From the NCBI RefSeq assembly GCF_036699995.1, contig NZ_CP144906.1, positions 2,743,001 to 2,807,000 of the forward strand: DNA of 64,000 bases. The letters are read 5' to 3'. Under the pieces are notes generated by a model. The model had not been told where the DNA came from, did no database searches, and saw only the letters and a program-made list of their open reading frames with translations. The translations under genes were made by a program, and so were the position numbers. Source of the stretch: Clostridium beijerinckii. Lineage in GTDB: Bacteria > Bacillota > Clostridia > Clostridiales > Clostridiaceae. This document shows, in pieces, positions 45,034 to 57,054 of the stretch (positions are counted from its first letter, which is position 1; every line of letters starts with the position of its first letter).

Positions 45034-46308
45034 TTATTTAACAACTACACCTACACCATTTGGAATGACTACAACATCTGCATCTTTACCTTTTATGTCA
45101 TATGCAATGCTTAATGCTTCATCAAAAGTATAAGCGTGTTTCATATGCATACTCTTAATCATATTAGGATCGCACATATCTGTAACTACGATCACAGTAT
45201 AGTTACATAAAATTCGTGTTAAAATTTGAATCTCCCATTGATCAGGTATTGTTTCATTTCTAGGAACTTTTAATATTTGTTCAAGAAGTTCTTCAGGAGA
45301 TTTTGAATTTGCTATAGTTTCGTAAAAAGATTGGCCACCATGTCCATCGTTACAAGCGGCTATCATAATAATTACTCCGCCTTTCTTACATGTAGCTTCT
45401 GCAGCTGTCATACCCTTTACAGCTTGGTATATATTTTGATCTAGTGGATATCCCCCATTACTTGAAATTGCAATATCAGCTTGTATGCTTTTTACACTAG
45501 AAAGCTCCATAACAAATTTGCAACCTTCCTCATGGGCAAGTTTACTATCACCAGCAAAAGCATTTATAATATTTTTATCTTCATCTATAACTACATTTAA
45601 TATAAATGCAAGATTTGCTTTTTCAGCAGCATAGAGCATATCTTTGTGTATAGGATTATCTTTTATAATTCCAGTCCTTGCATGATTGCTGTTAATAAAT
45701 TCAGAACAGTGATTTGCCATTATGGTTTTTGCTGAAGCTATTCCAGGTAATATGCTTTTTCTTCCGCCAGAAAATCCAGCAAAAAAATGTGGTTCTATAA
45801 AACCTTCTGCTATTAGGAGCTCGGTTTCCATCGCTAATTTATTTAGAAACAACTCACCACCAGAAGGTAGTGTTCCCACATTTATTAAACTGCTTTCATC
45901 TGTTGAAATATGGTTTATAATCTCTTCGTTATCAACTATGGTTTGCCCGAATTTATTTATCATTTCATCTCTAGTTGTTGGTCTATGAAAACCTGTGGCT
46001 ATAAGAATTTTTATGTTTATGTTGGGATTAACGTTCCTTATTCTTTGTAATAAAATTGGCATGGTAATTTTACTAGGAACAGGTCGTGTATGATCACTAG
46101 TTATAATAACCATATTATTTTTACCAATTACTAATTCCTCTAAAGATTTACTACCTATGCAATTATCAAGAGCTTTATTCACTATATCATTTTGTGAAAT
46201 ATCAGCTTTATAGGTATTTGCCTTGGAAACTAAAATGCCCTTTAGATTTTTATCATCAATGTTTATTTTTAAAGATTTTGTTGAGTATGGAATCTCGATT
46301 GAAGCCAT
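45034..46308 (-). CDS. LarA-family nickel-pincer racemase-like protein
   Basis: A 424-residue protein of the LarA (DUF2088) family. Residues known to matter in lactate racemase appear at the same numbers: SDHTRP with R75, H108 in ATGFHRPT, H174 in EPHFFAGFSGGRK, K184 in the same motif and H200 in IMANH. LarA needs a pyridinium nickel-pincer cofactor made by LarB, LarC and LarE, none of which is encoded here. Substrate is uncertain because LarA homologues act on several 2-hydroxyacids. It is divergent from cutC. A GGGAGGT ribosome binding site precedes the ATG at 46308. Confidence 0.87.
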   Translation of the reverse strand: MASIEIPYSTKSLKINIDDKNLKGILVSKANTYKADISQNDIVNKALDNCIGSKSLEELVIGKNNMVIITSDHTRPVPSKITMPILLQRIRNVNPNINIKILIATGFHRPTTRDEMINKFGQTIVDNEEIINHISTDESSLINVGTLPSGGELFLNKLAMETELLIAEGFIEPHFFAGFSGGRKSILPGIASAKTIMANHCSEFINSNHARTGIIKDNPIHKDMLYAAEKANLAFILNVVIDEDKNIINAFAGDSKLAHEEGCKFVMELSSVKSIQADIAISSNGGYPLDQNIYQAVKGMTAAEATCKKGGVIIMIAACNDGHGGQSFYETIANSKSPEELLEQILKVPRNETIPDQWEIQILTRILCNYTVIVVTDMCDPNMIKSMHMKHAYTFDEALSIAYDIKGKDADVVVIPNGVGVVVK

Positions 46309-47495: not shown

Positions 47496-50483
47496 TTGCT
47501 GGAAAATAAAATACTGGAGTTAATTGAAAATGAGGACAAAAGAAAGCCATTAACCGACAGTGATATTGCTAAATTAGTAAATACGACTAGAGAATATATA
47601 ACTCAATTTAGAACAGAAAAAAATATAAATAATTCTCGCCAAAGAAAAGAATCAATCCTATATAGTGATATAAAAAAAATAATTATTGAAGATAAAGATA
47701 TTTCAGATAGGCAGCTATGCAAAAGGCTATCTATTCTTGGATATGATATTTCTAGATATTCAGTATCTCAGATTAAAAAAAGTATAATTTCAGAAATTTT
47801 TCCGCAGAATGTTGCTAAAAAATCAAATTTAAATAAAGAGCAATCGAAAAATTTTATAACAGTTAAGTCAGCAGTTGATAAAGATGGGACGGAAATTAAT
47901 AATAGTCCCAATATAGATAATTCAAATAATGGCGATAAAAGTAATACTAATTATTTAAGAAATATTATAGGATATCACGGTTCGTTAAAAAATGCAATTA
48001 GTCAAGCAGAAGCAGCAGTATTATATCCACCTCATGGTCTCCATACTCTTTTACTTGGAGCTTCTGGTGTTGGAAAAAGTTTTTTTGCAGAGGCTATGTA
48101 TAATTTTGCTATTAGTTCTTCGCACTTTGATAAGAATGCACCCTTTGTACTTTTTAACTGTGCTGATTATGTAGATAATCCGCAATTACTTCTTTCTCAA
48201 TTGTTTGGGTACAGTAAAGGTGCCTTTACTGGCGCTAATACGGATAAGGTTGGCTTAGTAGAGAAAGCAAACAATGGGATACTATTCTTAGATGAAGTGC
48301 ATAGATTACCAAGCGAAGGTCAGGAAATATTGTTTTATCTGTTGGATAAAGGAAAGTACAGAAGGCTTGGTGAAACTGAAAATAGTAGGACAGCAAATGT
48401 GATGATAATTGCAGCAACAACAGAAGATCCAAAATCATCCTTGCTACTAACATTCAGAAGAAGAATTCCAATGATAATTGAACTTCCATCTATTAACAAC
48501 AGGCCTGTTAATGAAAAATATGTACTGATTAAAAGTTTTTTTTCACAAGAATCAGCTAGAGTGAGAAAGGAAATTACCATACGATATGAAGTCATCAGAT
48601 CGTTATTGTTATACAATTGTCCAGGGAACATAGGACAGCTACGAAGTGATATACAAGTTGCATGTGCAAGAGGTTTTTGTAATTCCTTAAGTAATAATTC
48701 AAATGAAGTTGTTATCGACATAAAAGATTTACCTAAGCATGTTCCTCTCGAAATATTAAGTGTTAAGGATAGAGAATTAGTTTCAGAAGATATTTTTAAT
48801 GAAGATTTGATTGTTAATCCTAATGATGTTGTAACTCAGAAGTCTAAAGATGATAGATATATGTTACCAGATGGAATATATAGTAATATAGAGGAAAAGT
48901 ATTATAAACTTGAAAAACAGGGGCTAAGTAAAGATGAAATTAATAAAATACTTTGGAGCAAAGTGGAATTCAATCTAAGTAAGTTTGCAAAAAATATAGA
49001 ATCAAATATGTTTTTTCCAAAGGAGGAACTAAAAAATATTATAGATGAAAGAATATTAAATGTGGTTGAAAAAGTAACTAATATTGCAAAACAATATATG
49101 GAAAATATTCAGGAAAATTTTTATTATTGTGTAGCAATGCATTTGAATTCAACTTATGAACGACTAAAACAAGGCAGGATAATAAGGAATCCTGAATCAG
49201 ATTATATAAAGAAGGAATATTACAATGAATACAGAATTGCAAAAATATTAACTAAAGAAATAAATAATAGCTTAGATATTCAACTTCCAGAAGATGAAAT
49301 AGGCTTTATCGCCATGTACTTAAAAACGTTTTCTAAGGTGGATGAGAATGTAAGCAGAGTGGCTGTTATTGTATTAAGTCATGGCCATGTTGCTTGCGGT
49401 ATGGCTGATGTAGCAAATAAGCTATTAGGTACAAATCTTGCAGTTGGAATTGAAATGTCACTAGATGAAAATCCTCAAATTTTGCTTGAAAGAGCTATAG
49501 AAGTAGTGAAAAGGGTTAATGAAGGTAAGGGTTGCTTGATATTGGTTGATATGGGATCCTTAGTTACATTTGGAGAGATAATAACAAAAGAAACTGGAGT
49601 TCCAACTAGAGTCATTGGTAGGGTAGATACTGTAATGGTGCTGGAAGCAGTTAGAAGATCATTAATGGAAAATAGTAATTTATACGAAATCTCCCAAGCT
49701 CTTGATGGGGATAAGAATTACGTTGGTAAAGTTAAAGGCGCAAATAAGTATACTAAAACTATAATTACCATATGTATAACAGGTGAAGGGACCGCGTTAA
49801 AAATAAAAAAGTATCTTGAAGATGTAGTGCTAGGAAATACAAATAAAAATTTAAGAATCATATCAATTGGAATTATAAATAAAAATACTGCTCAAGATGA
49901 AATAATTAAAATTAGTAGAGATCATGATATAGCTGCAATAGTCGGAACTATAGATCCAGAGTTAGAAAGTATTCCATTTATATCTTTTCAGGATATTTTA
50001 AAAGAATCAGGTAAATTAAGATTAAAAGAATTCCTCGGAATAAATAAGAAACAGTTTAATCCTTTAATAAATGTCATTGATGAGGAATTAATAAAAGTTA
50101 ATAATGATAGTTTTACCAAAAGTGATTTAATAGATGAGATGTGTAATCTTCTTATATCAAAAGGGAAAGTTAGTGAGAATTTTACAATGAGTGTGTATAA
50201 GCGAGAAATGCTTGGAGGAACATTGTTTGAAGGAATATTTGGAATACCTCATGGCCTATCAGAATTCGTTGAAAAATCATCTATAGCTATTTTTAAACTT
50301 AATAATCCTATTTTATGGGATTATAATTGTATGGTAGATGTTGTTATTATGTTAGCACTTGAGGAAAATGATGGGAAAGTGGTTAGGCAATTATTTGATA
50401 CCTTATCAAAGACAGAAGTAGCTAATAAATTAAGAAAATCAAATTCTCCGAAAGAGATTTCAGACATATTATTAAAAATCTAA
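47496..50483 (+). CDS. LevR-type sigma-54-dependent activator with PTS regulatory domains
   Basis: A 995-residue enhancer-binding protein. A putative N-terminal DNA-binding region (1-110) is followed by AAA+ (about 155-400) with Walker A GASGVGKS at 188-195, the sigma-54 contact loop GAFTGA at 242-247 and Walker B ILFLDE at 262-267. A PRD domain (about 515-612) includes H549. An EIIA-Man-like domain (about 622-735) has H629 in LSHGHVACG, and an EIIB-Gat-like region (about 752-835) follows. The C-terminal domain (about 870-990) resembles fructose/mannitol EIIA, with IPHG near 920, in place of a second PRD. Phosphorylation by PTS proteins would signal substrate availability. The start is TTG 47496 after GGGGGGAGA. 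Targets are the -24/-12 promoters just downstream. Confidence 0.93.
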   Translation: MLENKILELIENEDKRKPLTDSDIAKLVNTTREYITQFRTEKNINNSRQRKESILYSDIKKIIIEDKDISDRQLCKRLSILGYDISRYSVSQIKKSIISEIFPQNVAKKSNLNKEQSKNFITVKSAVDKDGTEINNSPNIDNSNNGDKSNTNYLRNIIGYHGSLKNAISQAEAAVLYPPHGLHTLLLGASGVGKSFFAEAMYNFAISSSHFDKNAPFVLFNCADYVDNPQLLLSQLFGYSKGAFTGANTDKVGLVEKANNGILFLDEVHRLPSEGQEILFYLLDKGKYRRLGETENSRTANVMIIAATTEDPKSSLLLTFRRRIPMIIELPSINNRPVNEKYVLIKSFFSQESARVRKEITIRYEVIRSLLLYNCPGNIGQLRSDIQVACARGFCNSLSNNSNEVVIDIKDLPKHVPLEILSVKDRELVSEDIFNEDLIVNPNDVVTQKSKDDRYMLPDGIYSNIEEKYYKLEKQGLSKDEINKILWSKVEFNLSKFAKNIESNMFFPKEELKNIIDERILNVVEKVTNIAKQYMENIQENFYYCVAMHLNSTYERLKQGRIIRNPESDYIKKEYYNEYRIAKILTKEINNSLDIQLPEDEIGFIAMYLKTFSKVDENVSRVAVIVLSHGHVACGMADVANKLLGTNLAVGIEMSLDENPQILLERAIEVVKRVNEGKGCLILVDMGSLVTFGEIITKETGVPTRVIGRVDTVMVLEAVRRSLMENSNLYEISQALDGDKNYVGKVKGANKYTKTIITICITGEGTALKIKKYLEDVVLGNTNKNLRIISIGIINKNTAQDEIIKISRDHDIAAIVGTIDPELESIPFISFQDILKESGKLRLKEFLGINKKQFNPLINVIDEELIKVNNDSFTKSDLIDEMCNLLISKGKVSENFTMSVYKREMLGGTLFEGIFGIPHGLSEFVEKSSIAIFKLNNPILWDYNCMVDVVIMLALEENDGKVVRQLFDTLSKTEVANKLRKSNSPKEISDILLKI

Positions 50484-50493
50484 CAACTATTTT

Positions 50494-50543
50494 AAGTTAC
50501 AAGGTAGAAAGTAAAAATTTTATCTTGTAACTTTATATTTTTA
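50494..50543 (+). terminator. Terminator of the activator gene
   Basis: AAGTTACAAG (50494-50503) / CTTGTAACTT (50524-50533) is followed by TATATTTTT. It separates the activator transcript from the sigma-54 promoters. Confidence 0.82.
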
Positions 50544-50570
50544 AATATATATTACCTTTTCAGCATAGTT

Positions 50571-50586
50571 TTGGCACGGCGATTGC
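50571..50586 (+). promoter_or_regulatory. Sigma-54 promoter P1 (-24/-12)
   Basis: TTGGCACGGCGATTGC matches the RpoN consensus, with GG and GC exactly 12 bp apart. It lies in the upstream copy of a duplicated promoter-gene start and now precedes only decayed EIIA starts, though it could still drive the intact gene. Confidence 0.92.
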
Positions 50587-50655
50587 TTTAGAAATATTGT
50601 GAAGATGTAATCAAAGATAAAAAAGTATAAAAACTACATCAAGTAAAGAAGAAGT

Positions 50656-50790
50656 ATGACCACTAGAAATATTAAAGAAAATTTATAGTAAAAGAGGAGG
50701 TAGTTTAATGACTTGAAGCATTGAGAAACTCTTGAGAAGAAATTTAGAAATAAATAACCTTGAAGATAAATTAAAAGCTGATTTTAAAAT
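50656..50790 (+). pseudogene. Two decayed copies of the EIIA gene start
   Basis: At 50656 an ATG after AAGAAGAAGT opens MTTRNIKENL then TAG. At 50708 an ATG after AGGAGGTAGTTTA reads MT, stop, then SIEKLLRRNLEINNLEDKLK. Both match the intact EIIA start MTRSIKEFLRRDLVVNNLEAK. The DNA before the first copy (50541-50630) matches that before the intact gene (50785-50870), including the promoter. This is a truncated tandem duplication in decay. Confidence 0.85.
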
Positions 50791-50817
50791 ATATATTGTT
50801 ACCTTTTCAGCATAGTT

Positions 50818-50833
50818 TTGGCATGATAATTGC
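50818..50833 (+). promoter_or_regulatory. Sigma-54 promoter P2 (-24/-12) of the PTS operon
   Basis: TTGGCATGATAATTGC has the GG/GC pair 12 bp apart. It lies 72 bp before the intact EIIA start codon and shares flanks (CAGCATAGTT and TGAAGATGTAATCA) with P1. Confidence 0.92.
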
Positions 50834-50904
50834 TTTGTAAATATTATGAAGATGTAATCATGGATGAAAACGTATAAAATACTTACAAAAAAGGAGGAAG
50901 TTAA

Positions 50905-51381
50905 ATGACTAGAAGTATTAAAGAATTTTTAAGAAGAGATTTAGTAGTAAATAATCTTGAAGCTAAATCAGCAGAGGATGTCTTTAAGAAGATATCTCCA
51001 ATATTATTAGAAGCAGGATTTGTAGAAGATTCCTTTTTTAATGGGTTAGTAAATAGAGAAAGTAAATTTCCTACAGGTTTATTACTTGGAAAATACAATG
51101 TTGCAATACCCCATACAGATACCATACATGTTAAGAAACCAGCAATAGCCATTGCAACACTAAAAAATCCCGTGAAATTTAATAGTATGGATGGAAATGG
51201 AAGCGTAGATGTCAATATAGTATTTACTATGGCTTTAAATGAACCTCACAGCCAGATAGTAATGTTACAGCAATTAATGTTTTTAATCCAGAATGAAAGC
51301 ATTCTCGAAAATATGCTTCAAGCAAAAAATAGCGACGAGGTGTATGATATCGTTTCAAGCTTTAATTGTAATTGCGAATAA
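50905..51381 (+). CDS. gatA: PTS EIIA component, galactitol/fructose type
   Basis: A 158-residue PTS_EIIA_2 domain that accepts phosphate from HPr and passes it to EIIB. The phosphorylated histidine is H70 in YNVAIPHTDTIHV, preceded by the GLVNRESKFPTGLL block. The C-terminal helix region (IVMLQQLMFLIQNESILENM) is typical. Length and sequence fit stand-alone GatA-like proteins. The ribosome binding site is AAAGGAGGAAG. It is the first gene of the operon driven by sigma-54. Two broken copies of its start lie immediately upstream. Confidence 0.92.
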   Translation: MTRSIKEFLRRDLVVNNLEAKSAEDVFKKISPILLEAGFVEDSFFNGLVNRESKFPTGLLLGKYNVAIPHTDTIHVKKPAIAIATLKNPVKFNSMDGNGSVDVNIVFTMALNEPHSQIVMLQQLMFLIQNESILENMLQAKNSDEVYDIVSSFNCNCE

Positions 51382-51432
51382 GTAATGAGCAATTATTTAA
51401 ATTATATGATTTTATTTTAAGGAGGTAAAAAA

Positions 51433-51717
51433 ATGGACAAACAAAAACTAATATTAGTAGCTTGTGGTACAGGAATAGCAACTTCAACAGTTGTATGTAA
51501 AAAGGTGGAAGACTTGATTAAAACTAATGGCATTAATGCGAGGATTATACAATGCAAGATTTCAGAGGTAGCAGGTTATGAAGATCAAGCAGATCTCTTA
51601 GTAACAACTACAATTTCATCACGAAATTATAAATTCCCTGTAATTAATGCTATGAACTATCTAACTAATATTAATCCAGCAAAAGTTGATCAAGGAATTA
51701 TAGATGCTTTGAAATAA
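51433..51717 (+). CDS. gatB: PTS EIIB component, galactitol type
   Basis: A 94-residue EIIB with the phosphocysteine loop VACGTGIATST, active C11. It carries phosphate from EIIA to the substrate bound by EIIC. The ribosome binding site is AAGGAGGT. A hairpin follows at 51724-51749, before the EIIC gene. Confidence 0.93.
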   Translation: MDKQKLILVACGTGIATSTVVCKKVEDLIKTNGINARIIQCKISEVAGYEDQADLLVTTTISSRNYKFPVINAMNYLTNINPAKVDQGIIDALK

Positions 51718-51723
51718 AAAAAG

Positions 51724-51749
51724 ATAGGCCACTTTAAAGGTGGACCTAT
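51724..51749 (+). terminator. Hairpin between EIIB and EIIC genes
   Basis: ATAGG.CCAC..TTTAAA..GTGG.CCTAT forms an interrupted stem followed by ATAAAAAAATT. It could attenuate transcription or protect the upstream gatAB mRNA. It is not a strong terminator. Confidence 0.45.
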
Positions 51750-51939
51750 ATAAAAAAATTAATTAGACTACTAATTATTATAGCACATAAAAGTATGTAT
51801 TTGAAGCTCAGGATAAAACATCTTAATTAATAGTATTTTTTGTTCAAAAACTAAATCACATATATAAATCTATGATATGAACAGCTTAATTGAGAATTTA
51901 TAAAAGTAAATAAAATTTGATAATATAGGGGGAAAGAAA

Positions 51940-53214
51940 ATGTTATTAAATGTAGTGCAATACATTTTAAACTTAGGACCAACTGTTATGCTGCCATTAA
52001 CAATTACTATTATCGGTATTATATTTGGACAAGGATTTAAAAAAGCATTTAGATCAGGTATTACAATTGGTATTGGTTTTGTTGGGATAAATTTGGTTGT
52101 CGGATTGCTTACAACAAATCTTGGTGGCGCAGCACAACAAATGGTTACTAGATATGGATTACAGCTAAGCATAATAGATGTAGGCTGGCCAGCTGCTGCT
52201 GCAATAAGTTGGGCATCTCCTATAGCAGCAATAATGATTCCAATAGCCATGTTAGTAAATTTAGTAATGCTAGCTACAAAGGCAACAAATGTAGTTGATA
52301 TTGATATATGGAATTATTGGCACTTTACTGCAGCTGGTGCTAGTGTGTACGTATTAACTAATGGTAACTGGCTATTTGCTATTTTGGCTGGTATTTTATA
52401 CGAAGTTGCTGTTATTAAGATTGCAGATAAGACAGCTCCAATGGTTCAAGAATTCTTTGGACTTGAGGGAGTATCATTACCAACCGGCTCAACTGCTGCA
52501 TGTGGTCTAATTGGTATTCCTATTGTCAGTGTAGTAAAAAGAATTCCGGGGATAAAAAATTTAAAAGCAGACCCAGAAACTATTCAAAAAAGATTTGGCG
52601 TTTTTGGAGAACCTATGATGATGGGACTTATTCTTGGTATTGTACTTGGAATTCTTGCCGGCTATGGTGTAGATAAAATCTTGCAAATAGGTATTTCAAT
52701 GGCTGGTGTCATGTTCTTAATGCCTAGAATGGTTAGAATACTTATGGAAGGTTTAATTCCAGTTTCAGAATCAGTTAGAGAATTCTTGCAAAAGAAAAAT
52801 TTTGGGAAAGATAGAAATCTTACAATTGGTTTGGATGCAGCAGTAGCAGTTGGACATCCAGCAGTTATTGCAACAGCACTTGTATTAGTTCCTATTACAT
52901 TATTCTTAGCAGTAATACTACCTGGAAATCAAGTTCTACCTTTTGGAGATTTAGCTACAATATGTTTTTATGTTGCCTTTATAGTTGGTGCGGCAAAAGG
53001 TAATATAGTGCACTCAGTTATATCAGGTACAATTGTTATGGCATTAGGATTACTAATGGCAACAAATATTGCTGGATTCCATACTCAAATGGCTCAAATG
53101 GCTCAGTTTACAATGCCAGCAGGAACATCAACTATTTCAAGCTTAGATATGGGTGGTAATTTCTTAAACTGGATAGTAATTAAGATATTCCAATTATTCA
53201 CAGGAAGTCTATAA
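51940..53214 (+). CDS. gatC: PTS EIIC component, galactitol-type permease
   Basis: A 424-residue membrane permease of the Gat family with about ten to twelve hydrophobic helices. It starts with LNLGPTVMLPLTITIIGIIF and contains GITIGIGFVGINLVVGLL, GWPAAAAISWASPIAA and LDAAVAVGHPAVIATALVLV, all typical of GatC. It imports and phosphorylates a polyol or sugar together with EIIA and EIIB. The actual substrate is not shown by sequence, and the downstream dehydrogenases suggest a small polyol. GGGGGAAAGAAA precedes the ATG. Confidence 0.92.
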   Translation: MLLNVVQYILNLGPTVMLPLTITIIGIIFGQGFKKAFRSGITIGIGFVGINLVVGLLTTNLGGAAQQMVTRYGLQLSIIDVGWPAAAAISWASPIAAIMIPIAMLVNLVMLATKATNVVDIDIWNYWHFTAAGASVYVLTNGNWLFAILAGILYEVAVIKIADKTAPMVQEFFGLEGVSLPTGSTAACGLIGIPIVSVVKRIPGIKNLKADPETIQKRFGVFGEPMMMGLILGIVLGILAGYGVDKILQIGISMAGVMFLMPRMVRILMEGLIPVSESVREFLQKKNFGKDRNLTIGLDAAVAVGHPAVIATALVLVPITLFLAVILPGNQVLPFGDLATICFYVAFIVGAAKGNIVHSVISGTIVMALGLLMATNIAGFHTQMAQMAQFTMPAGTSTISSLDMGGNFLNWIVIKIFQLFTGSL

Positions 53215-53220
53215 AGTGAA

Positions 53221-53433
53221 ACTTAGCTTCAGAGGGAGTTTTCTAGGTACCCCTTGAGGGTAAACCTCCCACTGAAGGTTAGTTGAAGTTATACCCTCAA
53301 GGGGTACACAGTCTAGGGTCGTGCCACTGTTATCTCTCACTTTAATAGAAGATGGGAGTGTTACAGTGGCTAGACATCAGATAAGATTAAATAACCTAAT
53401 TTGTTAAAGAGTGCTTATTAGTACTCTTTAACA
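53221..53433 (+). ncRNA. Candidate structured RNA between gatC and araM (four hairpins)
   Basis: A GC-richer intergenic block. Stem A pairs 53227-53241 with 53262-53277. Its loop holds a near-palindrome (53248-53262) that is also a perfect 15-nt complement of 53292-53306 (stem B), so A and B form a pseudoknot or alternative folds. Stem C pairs GTCTA (53311-53315) and GCCACTGT (53323-53330) with ACAGTGGC (53363-53370) and TAGAC (53371-53375). Stem D is TGTTAAAGAGT / ACTCTTTAACA (53402-53412 / 53423-53433). No U-tract follows, so this is not a simple terminator. No known RNA class is recognised. Confidence 0.6.
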
Positions 53434-53460
53434 CCATTGGTTATTTACAAGGAAAGGATG

Positions 53461-54837
53461 ATGGTTATAGTGGAAGTAATAAATTTAAAAGTAGAAGAAT
53501 TGATTGGAATGGATTTTAAGTGTGAATGTGGGAAAAGGCATAGTGTAGAAATTAATTCTGTAAAAATAGGAAGTAATATAATAGAACAACTTCCAGAATT
53601 CCTTAAAGAGTTTAAGAATAAAAAAATATTAATTGTACAAGATGTACACACATATGATGTAGCTGGAAAAAGAGTTGAAGAAACATTAAATAACGATTTT
53701 TTATTAAAGAAATATGTATTTCCACAGGAACACTTATTACCTGATGTATATGCTCTTGGAAGAGTTTTAATAGAAATAGAAGATGATACAGAACTTATAC
53801 TTGGTGTAGGTTCAGGTGTTATAAATGATATCTGCAGGTATGTGGCTTACAGAGCACATGTGCCTTATGCCATAGTATGTACTGCACCATCCATGGATGG
53901 CTATGCATCTGTGGTATCGCCTTTAATTACAGATGGATTCAAAGAATCTCATAAAGCAGCTTATGCTTATGGAATATATGCGGATATTGATATTATGAAG
54001 AATGCTCCAATGTATTTACTTTGTTCAGGACTTGGGGACGTATTAGGTAAATATACTGCTCTTGCAGACTGGTCAATTACAAACCTCTTAACAGGAGAAT
54101 ATTATTGTAAGACTATTGCAGATATGGTTCAAGCTGCAGTAGATAATTGCGTTGCTGCTGCACCAAGGATTCCAGAAAGGAATCATGAAGTAGTAAAAAA
54201 TATAACAGATGCACTAGTCTTGTCTGGAATAACTATAGGAATGTCAGGTTCTTCAAGACCTGCATCAGGTTCTGAGCATCATATTGCTCATGGCTGGGAA
54301 ATAATGTTTCATACAAGAAATAGTGAAGAAAAATGGGTACATGGAAACTTTGTTGGAGTAGGTACGGTTGTAATGTCTATGTTATTTGAAGCATTAAATG
54401 ATATAGATATAAAAAGTGTTATGGCTAAGAAAAGCTTCAGATACTACGATATGAATAAATGGAGACAAAATATTGAAAGCGTATTTGGTAAAGTGGCAGG
54501 TAATGTAATTAATTATAAAAAGGATGCAATTGAATTAGATCCTGATAAGAGACAAGAAAATGCAGAAAAGATAGCAGCAAACTGGAAGGAAATTCTTGAT
54601 ATTGGATATACTATAGTGCCAAGTTCTGAGAACGTAAAAAAAATACTACAGGACAGTGGATGTGTATGGCATCCTGAAGAACTTGGAATAGACAAGGATT
54701 TATTTATTAAGACTTTTATTGCTGCAAAGGACATAAGAACAAGATATGGCGTTGTGCATTTAATTGATGATCTTGGATTAACAGAAGAAATTGCTAATTT
54801 AATTGCTGATAAATTATATAAGTCCAGTAATATATAA
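53461..54837 (+). CDS. araM: sn-Glycerol-1-phosphate dehydrogenase-like protein (AraM/EgsA family)
   Basis: A 458-residue member of the iron-alcohol/glycerol dehydrogenase superfamily. The NAD-binding loop is LGVGSGVINDICRYVA. A TAPSMDGYAS block follows. Metal ligands are likely D193 (GLGDVLGKY), H273 or H274 (GSEHHIAHGWE) and H294 (WVHGNF). B. subtilis AraM interconverts sn-glycerol-1-phosphate and dihydroxyacetone phosphate with Ni. Activity on a related polyol phosphate is possible. The frame is open from 53437. ATG 53461, 6 nt after CAAGGAA, is favoured, and ATG 53458 or GTG 53470 are alternatives. It follows the structured RNA and precedes a HAD gene by 31 bp, as the araL-araM pair occurs in B. 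subtilis. Confidence 0.88.
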   Translation: MVIVEVINLKVEELIGMDFKCECGKRHSVEINSVKIGSNIIEQLPEFLKEFKNKKILIVQDVHTYDVAGKRVEETLNNDFLLKKYVFPQEHLLPDVYALGRVLIEIEDDTELILGVGSGVINDICRYVAYRAHVPYAIVCTAPSMDGYASVVSPLITDGFKESHKAAYAYGIYADIDIMKNAPMYLLCSGLGDVLGKYTALADWSITNLLTGEYYCKTIADMVQAAVDNCVAAAPRIPERNHEVVKNITDALVLSGITIGMSGSSRPASGSEHHIAHGWEIMFHTRNSEEKWVHGNFVGVGTVVMSMLFEALNDIDIKSVMAKKSFRYYDMNKWRQNIESVFGKVAGNVINYKKDAIELDPDKRQENAEKIAANWKEILDIGYTIVPSSENVKKILQDSGCVWHPEELGIDKDLFIKTFIAAKDIRTRYGVVHLIDDLGLTEEIANLIADKLYKSSNI

Positions 54838-54868
54838 GACAACTATATGTTTTAATGTGGAGGTAAAA

Positions 54869-55684
54869 ATGAATGAGTTAAAAGATATTAAATGTTTTTT
54901 ATTAGATATGGACGGGACTTTCTATCTTGGAAATACAATTATTGATGGAGCTTTAGACTTTCTAGACATTTTAAAAAGTCAACAAAAGAAATTTATATTC
55001 TTAACAAATAACTCTTCGAAAAACAAATCAACGTATAAGCAAAAGCTTTCAGCACTTGGTTGCTATGTTGATGAAGAACAAATTTACACATCCGGTGAAG
55101 CAACCATATGGTATATGAAGAAAAACTGCATAGGTAACAAGATATATCTCATGGGTACAGAACCACTTATGACAGAGTTTGAAAGGGCAGGTTTTATATT
55201 AGTTAAGGACAAAAATGACAAACCAGATTATGTAGTTCTTGGGTTTGACACTACACTAACTTATGAAAAAATATGGACAGCTTGTGATTATCTAAGAGAT
55301 GGAGTACCATTTATAGCTACTCATCCAGATTTTAATTGTCCAATTGAAGATAGCAAATATATGCCTGATACTGGCTCTATGATAAGAATGTTTGAAGCAT
55401 CTACAGGTATTTCTCCTGTGGTTATAGGTAAACCATATGGATATATAGTAGAAGCTATCATTGAAAAGTATGGCCTTAAAAAAGAAGAAGTGGCAATTGT
55501 AGGAGACAGGCTTTACACTGACATTAAAACTGGAGTTAATGCAGGAATAACTAGCATTCTTGTATTAAGTGGCGAGACATCAGAAGCTATGTATAAAGAA
55601 TCTGACATAACTGCAGATTATGTATTCTCATCAATTAAATATATTGGTGAAGAGTTGATGCGATTTTATGAAAGCTTTATTTAA
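54869..55684 (+). CDS. HAD-IIA family phosphatase (NagD/AraL-like)
   Basis: A 271-residue HAD-IIA enzyme. Motif I is LLDMDGTFYLGN. Motif II is FLTNNSSKNKSTY. The C-terminal signature is GKPYGYIVEAII followed by IVGDRLYTDIKTGVNAG. Relatives (NagD, AraL, glycerol-phosphate phosphatase) hydrolyse small sugar or polyol phosphates, and B. subtilis AraL is thought to detoxify excess sugar phosphates. ATG 54869 with GGAGG 5 nt upstream is preferred over the upstream open frame from 54803, which overlaps araM. It probably clears phosphorylated intermediates made by the PTS and dehydrogenases of this operon. Confidence 0.88.
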   Translation: MNELKDIKCFLLDMDGTFYLGNTIIDGALDFLDILKSQQKKFIFLTNNSSKNKSTYKQKLSALGCYVDEEQIYTSGEATIWYMKKNCIGNKIYLMGTEPLMTEFERAGFILVKDKNDKPDYVVLGFDTTLTYEKIWTACDYLRDGVPFIATHPDFNCPIEDSKYMPDTGSMIRMFEASTGISPVVIGKPYGYIVEAIIEKYGLKKEEVAIVGDRLYTDIKTGVNAGITSILVLSGETSEAMYKESDITADYVFSSIKYIGEELMRFYESFI

Positions 55685-55847
55685 GTCCTGGATGATTATA
55701 AGAATTTTATCTAGCCATTGTATGTTTAGAAGAACTTATTTAGCAGCTGTATGTTAAAAAGTATTGAAAATTCATGGAAAATAATTAAATTCTATGAGTT
55801 TTGAGAAATTAAAAAGAAGTTAATATTCAAAATTAGGAGGTAATGTT

Positions 55848-56894
55848 ATGAGCATTATAACAATTATTGGAGCAGGCCAAATGGCATCTGCACTAACTTT
55901 CCCAGCAACAGAAAATAATAATAAGATAAGACTTGTGGGTACACCATTAGATAGAGAAATCATAAATACTGCGAAGGCTACAGGTTTTCATTCGACATTA
56001 AAACGTCAATTACCTGAAACAGGAATTGAATACTATCAAATTGAAGATGTAAATGAAGCAATAGATGGAGCAGAGCTTATTATTTGTGGAGTCAGCAGCT
56101 TTGGTGTTGACTGGTTTGCAGACAATATATTACCTATTATACCAGAAGAGATTCCTATTCTTTCAATAACAAAGGGAATGATTACTGAAGAGGATGGCAA
56201 AATGATAAATTATCCTAACTACTTTTTAAGTAAACTTCCGTCTAATAAGAAACTTTCTATTAGCGCTGTAGGTGGACCATGTACTAGTTATGAACTTGCC
56301 GATAAAGATAATTCTGAAGTCGTATTTTGTGGTGATAACATAAACTTACTTAGAAAGTTTAAGAGTTTATTTGAAACTTCATACTATCATATTAGCTTAT
56401 CTACAGATATTATAGGTGTTGAATGTGCTGTAGCGCTAAAGAATGCTTATGCTTTAGGCGTATCACTAGCTATTGGATTAGCTATTGGAGCTGATGGATC
56501 TGGAAAGGAACATTACAATTCTCAGGCTGCACTTTTTGGACAAAGCATAAAGGAAGCTAAACGCCTTTTGGAAATAGTCGGAGGAGGAGAAGAAAACATT
56601 ATATATTTTGGCGGCGACTTATATGTAACTGTATTTGGTGGACGTACACGTAGAATAGGAACTTTATTAGGACAAGGATTTTCATTTAAGGAAGCTATGG
56701 AACAATTAAAAGGAGTTACATTAGAATCAGTAGTTATTGCTACTCGTGCTGCGAAATACGTACGTTGCTTAGCAGAAAAAGGAGTAGTTAAACTTAGTGA
56801 TTTTCCAATGATAACTCATATTGATGAGATTATAAATTCAGATGGCAAGGTTAATATTCCATGGAAAGCATTCGAGTCTGAAAAAATACTATAA
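55848..56894 (+). CDS. GpsA-like NAD(P)-dependent glycerol-3-phosphate dehydrogenase
   Basis: A 348-residue protein with an N-terminal Rossmann fold (IIGAGQMASALTFP) and GpsA landmarks: SITKGMITEEDG, the phosphate-binding GGPCTSYELA and the helical ECAVALKNAYALGVSLAIGL. GpsA makes sn-glycerol-3-phosphate from dihydroxyacetone phosphate for lipids. Sequence divergence from housekeeping GpsA (GPSFAxE replaced by GPCTSYE) and its place in a catabolic PTS operon suggest another polyol phosphate or the reverse reaction. GGAGGTAATGTT precedes the ATG. It is the last gene before a strong terminator. Confidence 0.83.
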   Translation: MSIITIIGAGQMASALTFPATENNNKIRLVGTPLDREIINTAKATGFHSTLKRQLPETGIEYYQIEDVNEAIDGAELIICGVSSFGVDWFADNILPIIPEEIPILSITKGMITEEDGKMINYPNYFLSKLPSNKKLSISAVGGPCTSYELADKDNSEVVFCGDNINLLRKFKSLFETSYYHISLSTDIIGVECAVALKNAYALGVSLAIGLAIGADGSGKEHYNSQAALFGQSIKEAKRLLEIVGGGEENIIYFGGDLYVTVFGGRTRRIGTLLGQGFSFKEAMEQLKGVTLESVVIATRAAKYVRCLAEKGVVKLSDFPMITHIDEIINSDGKVNIPWKAFESEKIL

Positions 56895-57016
56895 TTTATC
56901 ATTAACTAGCTGAAAATTTGGAATGTAAAGTTTAATAACTTTAATTAAAATTCTAAAGTTAAATTACCATGATTATAAAATGAACGTGTGGTAAATATTA
57001 TTGATATGATATTTTG

Positions 57017-57054
57017 AGTACAGTACTAGATTTAAACTTAGTGCTGTACTTTTC
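57017..57054 (+). terminator. Terminator of the PTS-dehydrogenase operon
   Basis: AGTACAGTACTA (57017-57028) pairs with TAGTGCTGTACT (57039-57050), with one G-T pair, and runs into TTTT. Confidence 0.85.

What the first reader, a model, noticed from the sequence alone, without database searches (positions are those of the whole stretch)
50541..56894. Sigma-54-driven PTS operon ending in dehydrogenases of opposite glycerol-phosphate stereochemistry
Seen: LevR-type activator, -24/-12 promoters, galactitol-type EIIA/B/C, an AraM-like glycerol-1-phosphate dehydrogenase, a NagD/AraL-like HAD phosphatase and a GpsA-like dehydrogenase, all co-directional and ending in one terminator. Known: AraM acts on sn-glycerol-1-phosphate and GpsA on sn-glycerol-3-phosphate, and the araL-araM pair belongs to an arabinose operon in B. 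subtilis. Inferred: a symmetric or racemic polyol (glycerol, tetritol or similar) is phosphorylated by the PTS, either end is oxidised, and the phosphatase clears dead-end phosphates. No galactitol-1-phosphate dehydrogenase or aldolase is present, so galactitol itself is unlikely.
Basis: partly seen in the sequence, partly recalled or inferred. Interest (0 to 1): 0.72.

Follow-up and report, generated by a model that had tools for sequence, protein, structure and literature searches.

The report
Polyol uptake operon with swapped enzymes
A Clostridium operon that probably imports and phosphorylates a sugar alcohol carries an unusual pair of dehydrogenases plus a phosphatase in place of the enzymes found behind some of its closest transporter relatives, and one transporter residue changes along with that swap, which makes its unknown substrate testable.

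Summary
The operon is real: LevR-type activator, two exact sigma-54 sites, galactitol-family EIIA/B/C, then AraM-like, HAD-IIA and GpsA-like genes, all on one strand. The same PTS and enzyme genes stand together in 16 of 206 family genomes, in two gene orders. In the EIIC tree these operons are interleaved with two whose EIIC (up to 85% identical) leads into Zn dehydrogenases and transketolase, in one also transaldolase-type FSA, Rpe and RpiB: a pentitol-type set. One clade for the AraM/HAD/GpsA-linked EIICs is rejected (AU p 0.0026). One EIIC site, 188, is Cys in 16 of 16 of them and aromatic in the other 11 rows; no other pair of rows gives such a site (1 of 153). AraM and HAD are a unit: fused in three genomes, and the only enzymes in two other types of PTS operon. 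Best explanation: a pentitol-class PTS operon in which AraM-like and GpsA-like proteins oxidise the imported polyol phosphate. Against it: glycerol kinase lies near AraM or GpsA-like genes at three loci, GpsA-like co-occurs with sorbitol-6-phosphate dehydrogenases, site 188 hints at a changed substrate, and every substrate is inferred.

The parts
47496..50483 (+). LevR/DagR-type sigma-54 activator: AAA+ with GAFTGA loop, PRD, EIIA-Man, C-terminal EIIA_2 domain
   Evidence: DagR model 544 bits, cut-off 1400: relative, not DagR
50494..50533 (+). terminator-like hairpin between LevR and the PTS promoters
   Evidence: number of such sites not above chance
50572..50587 (+). distal sigma-54 -24/-12 site TGGCACGGCGATTGCT
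50656..50789 (+). two decayed copies of the EIIA gene start (stop codons after a few codons), left by tandem duplication of the promoter region
   Evidence: read; repeat family D2
50819..50834 (+). proximal sigma-54 site TGGCATGATAATTGCT, 86 bp before EIIA
50905..51381 (+). PTS EIIA, PTS_EIIA_2 (Gat/Fru type), His in AIPHTD
51433..51717 (+). PTS EIIB, Gat type, Cys in VACGTG
51940..53214 (+). PTS EIIC, EIIC-GAT; residue 188 Cys in SLPTGSTAACG
53388..53447 (+). stem-loop before the AraM-like gene; same stem sequence in 7 of 9 genus loci, a different stem in L012, none in L058
53461..54837 (+). AraM-like (long form, 458 aa) Fe-ADH_2/G1PDH-family dehydrogenase; the ORF opens at 53437
54869..55684 (+). 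HAD-IIA (NagD/AraL-like) phosphatase, all four HAD motifs
55848..56894 (+). GpsA-like NAD-dependent dehydrogenase of a separate subfamily (closest solved sequence 1txg)
57016..57051 (+). 14-bp hairpin followed by TTTTC, candidate operon terminator
   Evidence: not found by the scan

Best explanation
A sigma-54/LevR-controlled PTS operon for a small sugar alcohol, most likely of the pentitol class and not galactitol. EIIA-EIIB-EIIC import the polyol and phosphorylate it. The AraM-like and GpsA-like proteins are the NAD(P)-dependent polyol-phosphate dehydrogenases that pass it on as a ketose phosphate; they do the work that Zn-dependent dehydrogenases plus pentose-phosphate enzymes do behind closely related EIICs. 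The HAD phosphatase is AraM's partner and removes phosphate from a product or by-product of AraM. LevR senses PTS phosphorylation and activates two duplicated -24/-12 promoters. Shown: gene content, conservation, catalytic residues, promoter sequences, the cassette swap, and the EIIC-188 correlation. Inferred: the substrate class, the direction of each reaction, what HAD acts on, the regulator's signal and co-transcription.
For: PTS, AraM, HAD and GpsA stand together in 16 of the 18 family genomes that have an EIIC of 78% identity or more (206 searched; contexts); the other 2 (L203, L206) carry two Zn dehydrogenases and transketolase halves and, in L203, FSA/TalC, Rpe and RpiB above their cut-offs. 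L203 sits in one clade with L201, L202, L204, L205 (100/99); AU test p 0.0026 against one clade of AraM-type rows; at least 2 cassette changes. In Bacillus methanolicus a Gat-type PTS with two Zn dehydrogenases handles D-arabitol and yields xylulose-5-P (PMC6685057, PMC7511216, passages seen). AraM+HAD are the only enzymes in the run with a distant Gat-type PTS (L011; next gene a chemotaxis receptor) and with a mannose-type PTS (L022; next gene leucyl-tRNA synthetase on the other strand), which suits PTS plus one polyol-P dehydrogenase; in L064 such a run is followed after 658 bp by transketolase halves. AraM-HAD is fused in L061, L062 and L246. AraM metal-site Asp and His 56 of 56 rows, HAD motif residues 31 of 31, GpsA K109, K198, N199, D257, R266 52 of 52, T261 51 of 52 (rows include the window and a few repeats). 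Sigma-54 site before all 17 loci.
Against: EIIC-188 changes with the cassette, so the substrate may differ from that of the pentitol-type sisters; my own result weakens the parsimony argument. The Zn dehydrogenases of the sister operons reach no curated cut-off (nearest models galactitol-1-P and threonine dehydrogenase), so 'pentitol-type' is itself an inference. GpsA-like also sits in glucitol-PTS operons that already have a sorbitol-6-P dehydrogenase (L097, L119, L218, L219, L220), so it may be accessory. GlpK adjoins AraM in L251 and L252 and lies two genes before GpsA-like in L221. GpsA keeps the residues needed for G3P/DHAP (roles recalled); only the Asn after the Arg is changed (Thr 46, Ser 4, Asn 2 of 52). 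Of the 38 AraM hits outside the operon set, 26 show none of the pentose genes that I could label on the same strand within 6 kb, and 16 show no labelled neighbour at all (GlpK not counted as a pentose gene). No activity is tested.
Confidence: 0.45

Rival explanations
1. One reading: glycerol or a tetritol is phosphorylated by the PTS; AraM (sn-1) and GpsA (sn-3) oxidise opposite enantiomers and HAD clears dead-end phosphates.
For: Both enzymes belong to families whose characterised members act on G1P and G3P (PMC5059525 passages; families). GlpK stands beside AraM in L251 and L252 and two genes before GpsA-like in L221. GpsA-like is followed by XylB and an RpiB that resembles, below cut-off, the erythrulose-4-P isomerase model in L224 (L223 alike by BLAST).
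Against: Two EIICs of the same clade lead into pentose-phosphate-type enzymes. AraM-HAD recurs with transketolase and ribulokinase. A PTS should give one enantiomer, so two enzymes of opposite preference are not needed for a symmetric substrate (reasoning, not tested).
Confidence: 0.2
2. Reductive valve: AraM reduces DHAP to G1P and HAD releases glycerol, disposing of extra NADH and phosphate when a reduced polyol is fermented; the GpsA-like enzyme either oxidises the PTS product or makes G3P.
For: AraM-HAD fusion fits reduction followed by dephosphorylation; the module occurs with unrelated transporters; B. subtilis AraM is a G1P dehydrogenase (PMC5059525 passages).
Against: AraM-HAD are the only enzymes in the L011 and L022 runs, which would leave the imported phosphate without a dedicated enzyme there. 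B. subtilis AraL showed no activity on glycerol-3-P; G1P is not in the list that I saw (PMC3207120 passages).
Confidence: 0.17
3. The enzyme genes are a bystander cluster transcribed apart from the PTS, from their own promoter.
For: A 246-bp gap with strong hairpins between EIIC and AraM in the window; the AraM-HAD pair moves between PTS types.
Against: The gap is only about 76 bp in L008-L010; linkage is kept in 16 genomes and two gene orders; no exact sigma-54 site lies in the gap.
Confidence: 0.06

Closest known systems
Bacillus methanolicus D-arabitol operon atlABCD-F (Gat-type PTS plus two Zn dehydrogenases; PMC6685057, PMC7511216, passages)
   Same: Gat-type EIIA/B/C annotated as galactitol; two dehydrogenases behind the PTS; PTS-linked regulator
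   Different: There the dehydrogenases are MDR enzymes; here they are AraM-like and GpsA-like, with a HAD phosphatase. Activator here is LevR-type with sigma-54 sites; there it is annotated as a BglG-type antiterminator.
Sigma-54 pentose-phosphate operons of C. beijerinckii (PMC6510779, section 7)
   Same: Same promoter consensus, same species group, PTS and polyol dehydrogenase genes in the figure legend
   Different: Those are described with transketolase, epimerase and isomerase genes; I could not open the supplement to see whether this operon is listed.
araL-araM of the Bacillus subtilis ara operon
   Same: An AraM-family enzyme next to a HAD-IIA phosphatase
   Different: Here the long (458 aa) AraM form, in a PTS operon with GpsA-like and no arabinose genes.
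Escherichia coli gatYZABCD
   Same: EIIA/B/C family
   Different: No GatD, no GatYZ aldolase in the operon; EIIC below the galactitol model's cut-off; site 188 Cys, Met in the E. coli fragment.

Membership tests
Galactitol-family PTS (EIIC-GAT) | EIIA_2, PTS_IIB and EIIC-GAT domains with active His and Cys | tested here: met
   residues read (their roles recalled)
Galactitol-family PTS (EIIC-GAT) | curated cut-offs of the galactitol-specific models | tested here: not met
   EIIA 97.9 of 139, EIIB 57.8 of 95, EIIC 529.1 of 542.2 bits
LevR-type sigma-54 activator | AAA+ sigma-54 domain with GAFTGA, PRD, EIIA-Man | tested here: met
   GAFTGA read (its role is recalled)
LevR-type sigma-54 activator | second PRD at the C-terminus (recalled for LevR) | tested here: not met
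   one PRD, C-terminus is EIIA_2; the relative in L022 has two PRDs
G1P dehydrogenase (EgsA/AraM) | family domain and metal ligands | tested here: met
   (ligand roles recalled)
G1P dehydrogenase (EgsA/AraM) | curated cut-off of the G1PDH model | tested here: not met
   219.6 of 413 bits
G1P dehydrogenase (EgsA/AraM) | activity on G1P/DHAP | not testable with these tools
   no assay
GpsA G3P dehydrogenase | catalytic Lys, Lys-Asn, Asp, Thr, Arg | tested here: met
   (roles recalled)
GpsA G3P dehydrogenase | Asn after the phosphate-binding Arg (N270 of human GPD1, recalled) | tested here: not met
   Thr in window; Thr/Ser 50 of 52
GpsA G3P dehydrogenase | curated cut-offs of GpsA models | tested here: not met
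   best 102.9 of 423 bits
HAD-IIA phosphatase | TIGR01460 cut-off and four HAD motifs | tested here: met
   (158.6 against cut-off 100.15)
Pentitol PTS operon (atl type) | Gat-type PTS behind a PTS-linked regulator | tested here: met
Pentitol PTS operon (atl type) | Zn-dependent (MDR) polyol-P dehydrogenases in the operon | tested here: not met
Pentitol PTS operon (atl type) | growth or induction on a pentitol | not testable with these tools
   no data
araLM arabinose operon | araA/B/D genes alongside | tested here: not met
   an AraD lies elsewhere in the genome

The most novel reading that the evidence does not exclude
The cassette is an unrecognised polyol route in which both dehydrogenases oxidise the carbon next to the phosphate, as their glycerol-phosphate relatives do. 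With opposite handedness at C2 they would turn two epimeric polyol-1-phosphates (for example ribitol-1-P by GpsA-like and D-arabitol-1-P by AraM-like) into the same ketose-1-phosphate. HAD would then free the ketose for a pentulokinase, a phosphate relay, or an aldolase would cleave it. EIIC-188 (aromatic to Cys) would mark the matching change of transporter specificity. Fits: AraM-HAD fusion in three genomes, ribulokinase or xylulokinase near some AraM and GpsA-like genes, an L-fuculose-phosphate-type aldolase next to GpsA-like in L221, and a xylulokinase in this genome. Against: no gene named FucA in this genome (the second class-II aldolase has no NCBIfam name at 1e-40), the kinases may serve xylose and arabinose only, and some of the kinase neighbours are GlpK.
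Probability: 0.12. Interest if true: 0.78.

Novelty: new variant of a known kind. Interest (0 to 1): 0.5.

Why it matters
By family models, genes of this kind would be called galactitol PTS, glycerol-1-phosphate and glycerol-3-phosphate dehydrogenases, and the context makes those labels doubtful. If the cassette is a polyol-phosphate route, two dehydrogenase families known for setting the handedness of membrane-lipid glycerol phosphate have been reused for sugar-alcohol catabolism, and presence of AraM homologues in bacteria is then poor evidence for archaeal-type lipid synthesis. The paired cassettes behind one EIIC clade, with one covarying residue, give a direct test of what sets specificity in this transporter family.

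Tried and rejected
Galactitol: rejected (no gatD/gatYZ in the operon, models below cut-off, site 188). A known Rfam element: none reached the gathering score in the window. Plasmid copies of the promoter region: no match. Mapping EIIC onto UlaA: global hhalign failed; hmmsearch with a wider profile gave a weak 10.6-bit alignment placing T182/G183 at UlaA H194/Q195, named as substrate contacts in PMC6048161 (passages), and C188 at S200. The model of EIIC (mean pLDDT 81.4) puts residue 188 in the helix 183-199 just after that tip; whether it touches the substrate is not shown. Structure searches were not run. First guess that every FGGY neighbour was a pentulokinase: wrong, three are GlpK. First guess that the FGGY protein near AraD in this genome is AraB: not borne out; only a weak XylB match, 110 of 380 bits. 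Literature: the listings of searches (2 of 2 papers; 0; 0; 20 of 903; 11 of 11; 12 of 12; 20 of 48; 12 of 261; 8 of 25) and 90 (2 of 2) named no paper on this operon; several of the listings were partial, and the supplement of PMC6510779 was not open to me. In PMC4706839 and PMC6837493 the term galactitol did not occur.

Caveats on counts: rows left out of the careful EIIC tree were L011, L109, L226 and a shorter second L210 copy; identical sequences entered once. The site-188 result was found after the groups were known; the 153-pair control does not correct for relatedness. L011, also AraM+HAD-linked but with an EIIC of 28% identity, has Ala at the aligned place, in an alignment not to be trusted there. 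Neighbour labels are BLAST best hits or clusters; only those put through Pfam or NCBIfam are firm. Whether the cassette's AraM was recruited once is open: both AraM types fall in one group, but with L245 inside it at 87% support.


Full report
What is there. The window lies at 2743001-2807000 of a 5.55 Mb single-contig genome; the nearest named relative of its AraM-like protein found is in Clostridium beijerinckii HUN142 (95%). The operon runs LevR-type activator, EIIA, EIIB, EIIC, AraM-like, HAD-IIA, GpsA-like. Curated cut-offs of the galactitol, G1P-dehydrogenase and GpsA models are missed; the HAD-IIA subfamily cut-off is met. The names are therefore family names, not functions.

Promoters. 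The sigma-54 consensus used for C. beijerinckii in PMC6510779 (section 7 seen) occurs twice in 64 kb, both upstream of EIIA, inside a 247-bp tandem repeat that also holds two decayed EIIA starts. All 17 AraM/HAD/GpsA loci tested (16 genomes; L013 and L208 are the same stretch) have an exact site within 150 bp of the first PTS gene; of 11 relatives with other cassettes, 6 have one within 700 bp and 5 (L210, L211, L215, L216, L217) none. Six of the 17 have two sites in that reach: window, L008 and L056 with spacing 237-247, presumably one event; L058, L202 and L205 with spacings of their own.

Conservation. In 206 family genomes, 47 have an EIIC relative at E<=1e-60 and 18 one of 78% identity or more. 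Of those 18, 16 carry AraM, HAD and GpsA next to the PTS, in two orders: EIIC-AraM-HAD-GpsA (the nine same-genus genomes and L201) and EIIC-GpsA-AraM-HAD (six genomes). A LevR-type gene precedes the PTS in 15; in L201 the contig ends first. In the nine same-genus genomes AraM is 80-100% identical; in the other seven it is 46-49% while EIIC is 78-82% and GpsA 74-78%; in L013, L099 and L207 the LevR gene is only 38% identical. The window's own flanking genes (LarA, CutC, histidine kinase) recur only in L008 and L056, so the unit sits in different places. L011, a second locus in C. beijerinckii HUN142, has AraM (88%) and HAD (92%) behind a different Gat-type PTS (EIIC 28%) and no GpsA.

Cassette swap. 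The remaining two EIICs of 78% or more (L203, L206; each 81% to the window) lead into two Zn-type MDR dehydrogenases and transketolase halves, in L203 followed by FSA/TalC, Rpe and RpiB above their cut-offs. EIICs of 63-69% identity carry the same type of set in L209, L210 and L212-L217 by clustering (L212 without transketolase in view; L209 and L210 with one dehydrogenase), while L211 has FSA and GpsA-like only. On the careful tree of 28 EIICs the AraM/HAD/GpsA rows are not one clade: L203 groups with L201, L202, L204 and L205 at 100/99, AU p 0.0026, at least two changes. A Gat-type PTS with two Zn dehydrogenases is the D-arabitol system of B. methanolicus, where the product is xylulose-5-P (PMC6685057 and PMC7511216, passages). 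That is the reason for placing the window PTS among pentitol systems. The Zn dehydrogenases of the sister operons themselves reach no curated cut-off.

One transporter residue. Within 27 aligned EIICs only position 188 is invariant in the 16 AraM/HAD/GpsA rows (Cys) and absent from the others (Phe in ten, Tyr in L203); among the 153 ways of naming two odd rows in the 18-row clade, only the true pair yields any such site. A looser count, positions fixed in the remaining A rows from which a chosen pair differs, reaches 4 for one control pair, so the separation from the outgroup is what makes the site stand out. L211, with GpsA but without AraM and HAD, has Phe, so Cys goes with AraM+HAD. In 30 more distant EIIC-GAT rows of 52% identity or less (two of them the same protein) the site is Phe, Tyr or Trp in 23 and otherwise Ser, Met, Leu, Val, Asn or, in L184, Cys. 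The solved galactitol EIIC has Leu by the alignment and the E. coli GatC fragment Met. The site lies six residues after the hairpin tip that a weak alignment places at the ascorbate contacts His194/Gln195 of UlaA, in helix 183-199 of the model. This argues that specificity shifted with the cassette, which weakens the simple claim that the substrate is the same pentitol.

The AraM-HAD module. AraM and HAD are adjacent in all 16 operons and fused in L061, L062 and L246 (Pfam). They are the only enzymes of the mannose-type PTS run in L022, whose PTS domains and neighbours were checked (L063 is alike by BLAST), and of L011 (next gene a chemotaxis receptor). In L064 transketolase halves follow a mannose-type PTS-AraM-HAD run after 658 bp. 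Elsewhere AraM relatives adjoin ribulokinase (L061, L254, L255), transketolase (L243, L244) and xylulokinase in the vicinity (L246), but also glycerol kinase (L251, L252). Of the 55 AraM hits tabulated, 17 belong to the operon set (two of them repeats); of the other 38, 12 have a HAD neighbour on the same strand and 3 more are fused, 12 have a labelled pentose-type neighbour, 2 have GlpK, and 16 have no labelled neighbour.

The GpsA-like protein. It belongs to a subfamily nearest by sequence to structure 1txg, an archaeal G3P dehydrogenase (organism recalled), separate from the genome's own canonical GpsA (32%). All 52 rows keep Lys109, Lys198, Asn199, Asp257 and Arg266; the Asn that follows the Arg in the canonical protein is Thr or Ser in 50 of 52. 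Relatives occur with Gat PTS, with glucitol PTS plus sorbitol-6-P dehydrogenase (L097, L119, L218, L219, L220), with pentulose-type FGGY kinases (L100, L101, L113, L116, L223, L224), and in L221 with glycerol kinase, an L-fuculose-phosphate aldolase above its cut-off and an FSA-like protein below it (L101, L116, L223 by BLAST). L218 and L211 fall inside the Gat-linked clade of the GpsA tree, so the gene moves between operon types. This pattern is a polyol-phosphate theme; it does not fix the substrate.

Genome inventory. This genome has GlpK, a xylulokinase next to xylose isomerase, a xylulokinase-like protein just under cut-off, one unnamed FGGY protein, an AraD next to a TalC/FSA, and a second class-II aldolase without a name.

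Verdict. A pentitol-class substrate with AraM-like and GpsA-like as polyol-phosphate dehydrogenases is the best-supported account (0.45), ahead of glycerol/tetritol (0.20) and a reductive glycerol valve (0.17). No enzyme activity, transcript or growth result was available here.

Noticed in passing
window 53247-53307 and 53388-53447: Two strong inverted repeats between EIIC and AraM. The second keeps its stem in 7 of 9 genus loci and is replaced by a different-sequence stem in L012; it has no T tract, so it may be an RNA processing or stability element. The first lies in an extra stretch largely shared with L056 but absent from L008 and L010.
   Followed up: partly
window 51718-51939; L056 7709-8115: The EIIB-EIIC gap varies from about 160 to over 400 bp between close relatives; L056 holds an extra insert.
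   Followed up: no
L058, L202, L205, L206: Tandem sigma-54 sites with spacings different from the window's, as if promoter duplication had happened repeatedly.
   Followed up: partly
window 45034-46308 (-): Nickel-dependent lactate racemase LarA above its curated cut-off, divergent from a CutC gene; a LarA relative (72%) also stands next to the LevR gene of L211.
   Followed up: no
L061 7946-10180, L062 7745-9949, L246 8227-10425: Single-ORF fusions of an AraM-like dehydrogenase and a HAD-IIA phosphatase; in L061 next to ribulokinase.
   Followed up: partly
window 47496-50483: The activator ends in an EIIA_2 domain with a PHG motif instead of a second PRD, unlike the LevR relative in L022, which has two PRDs.
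   Followed up: no
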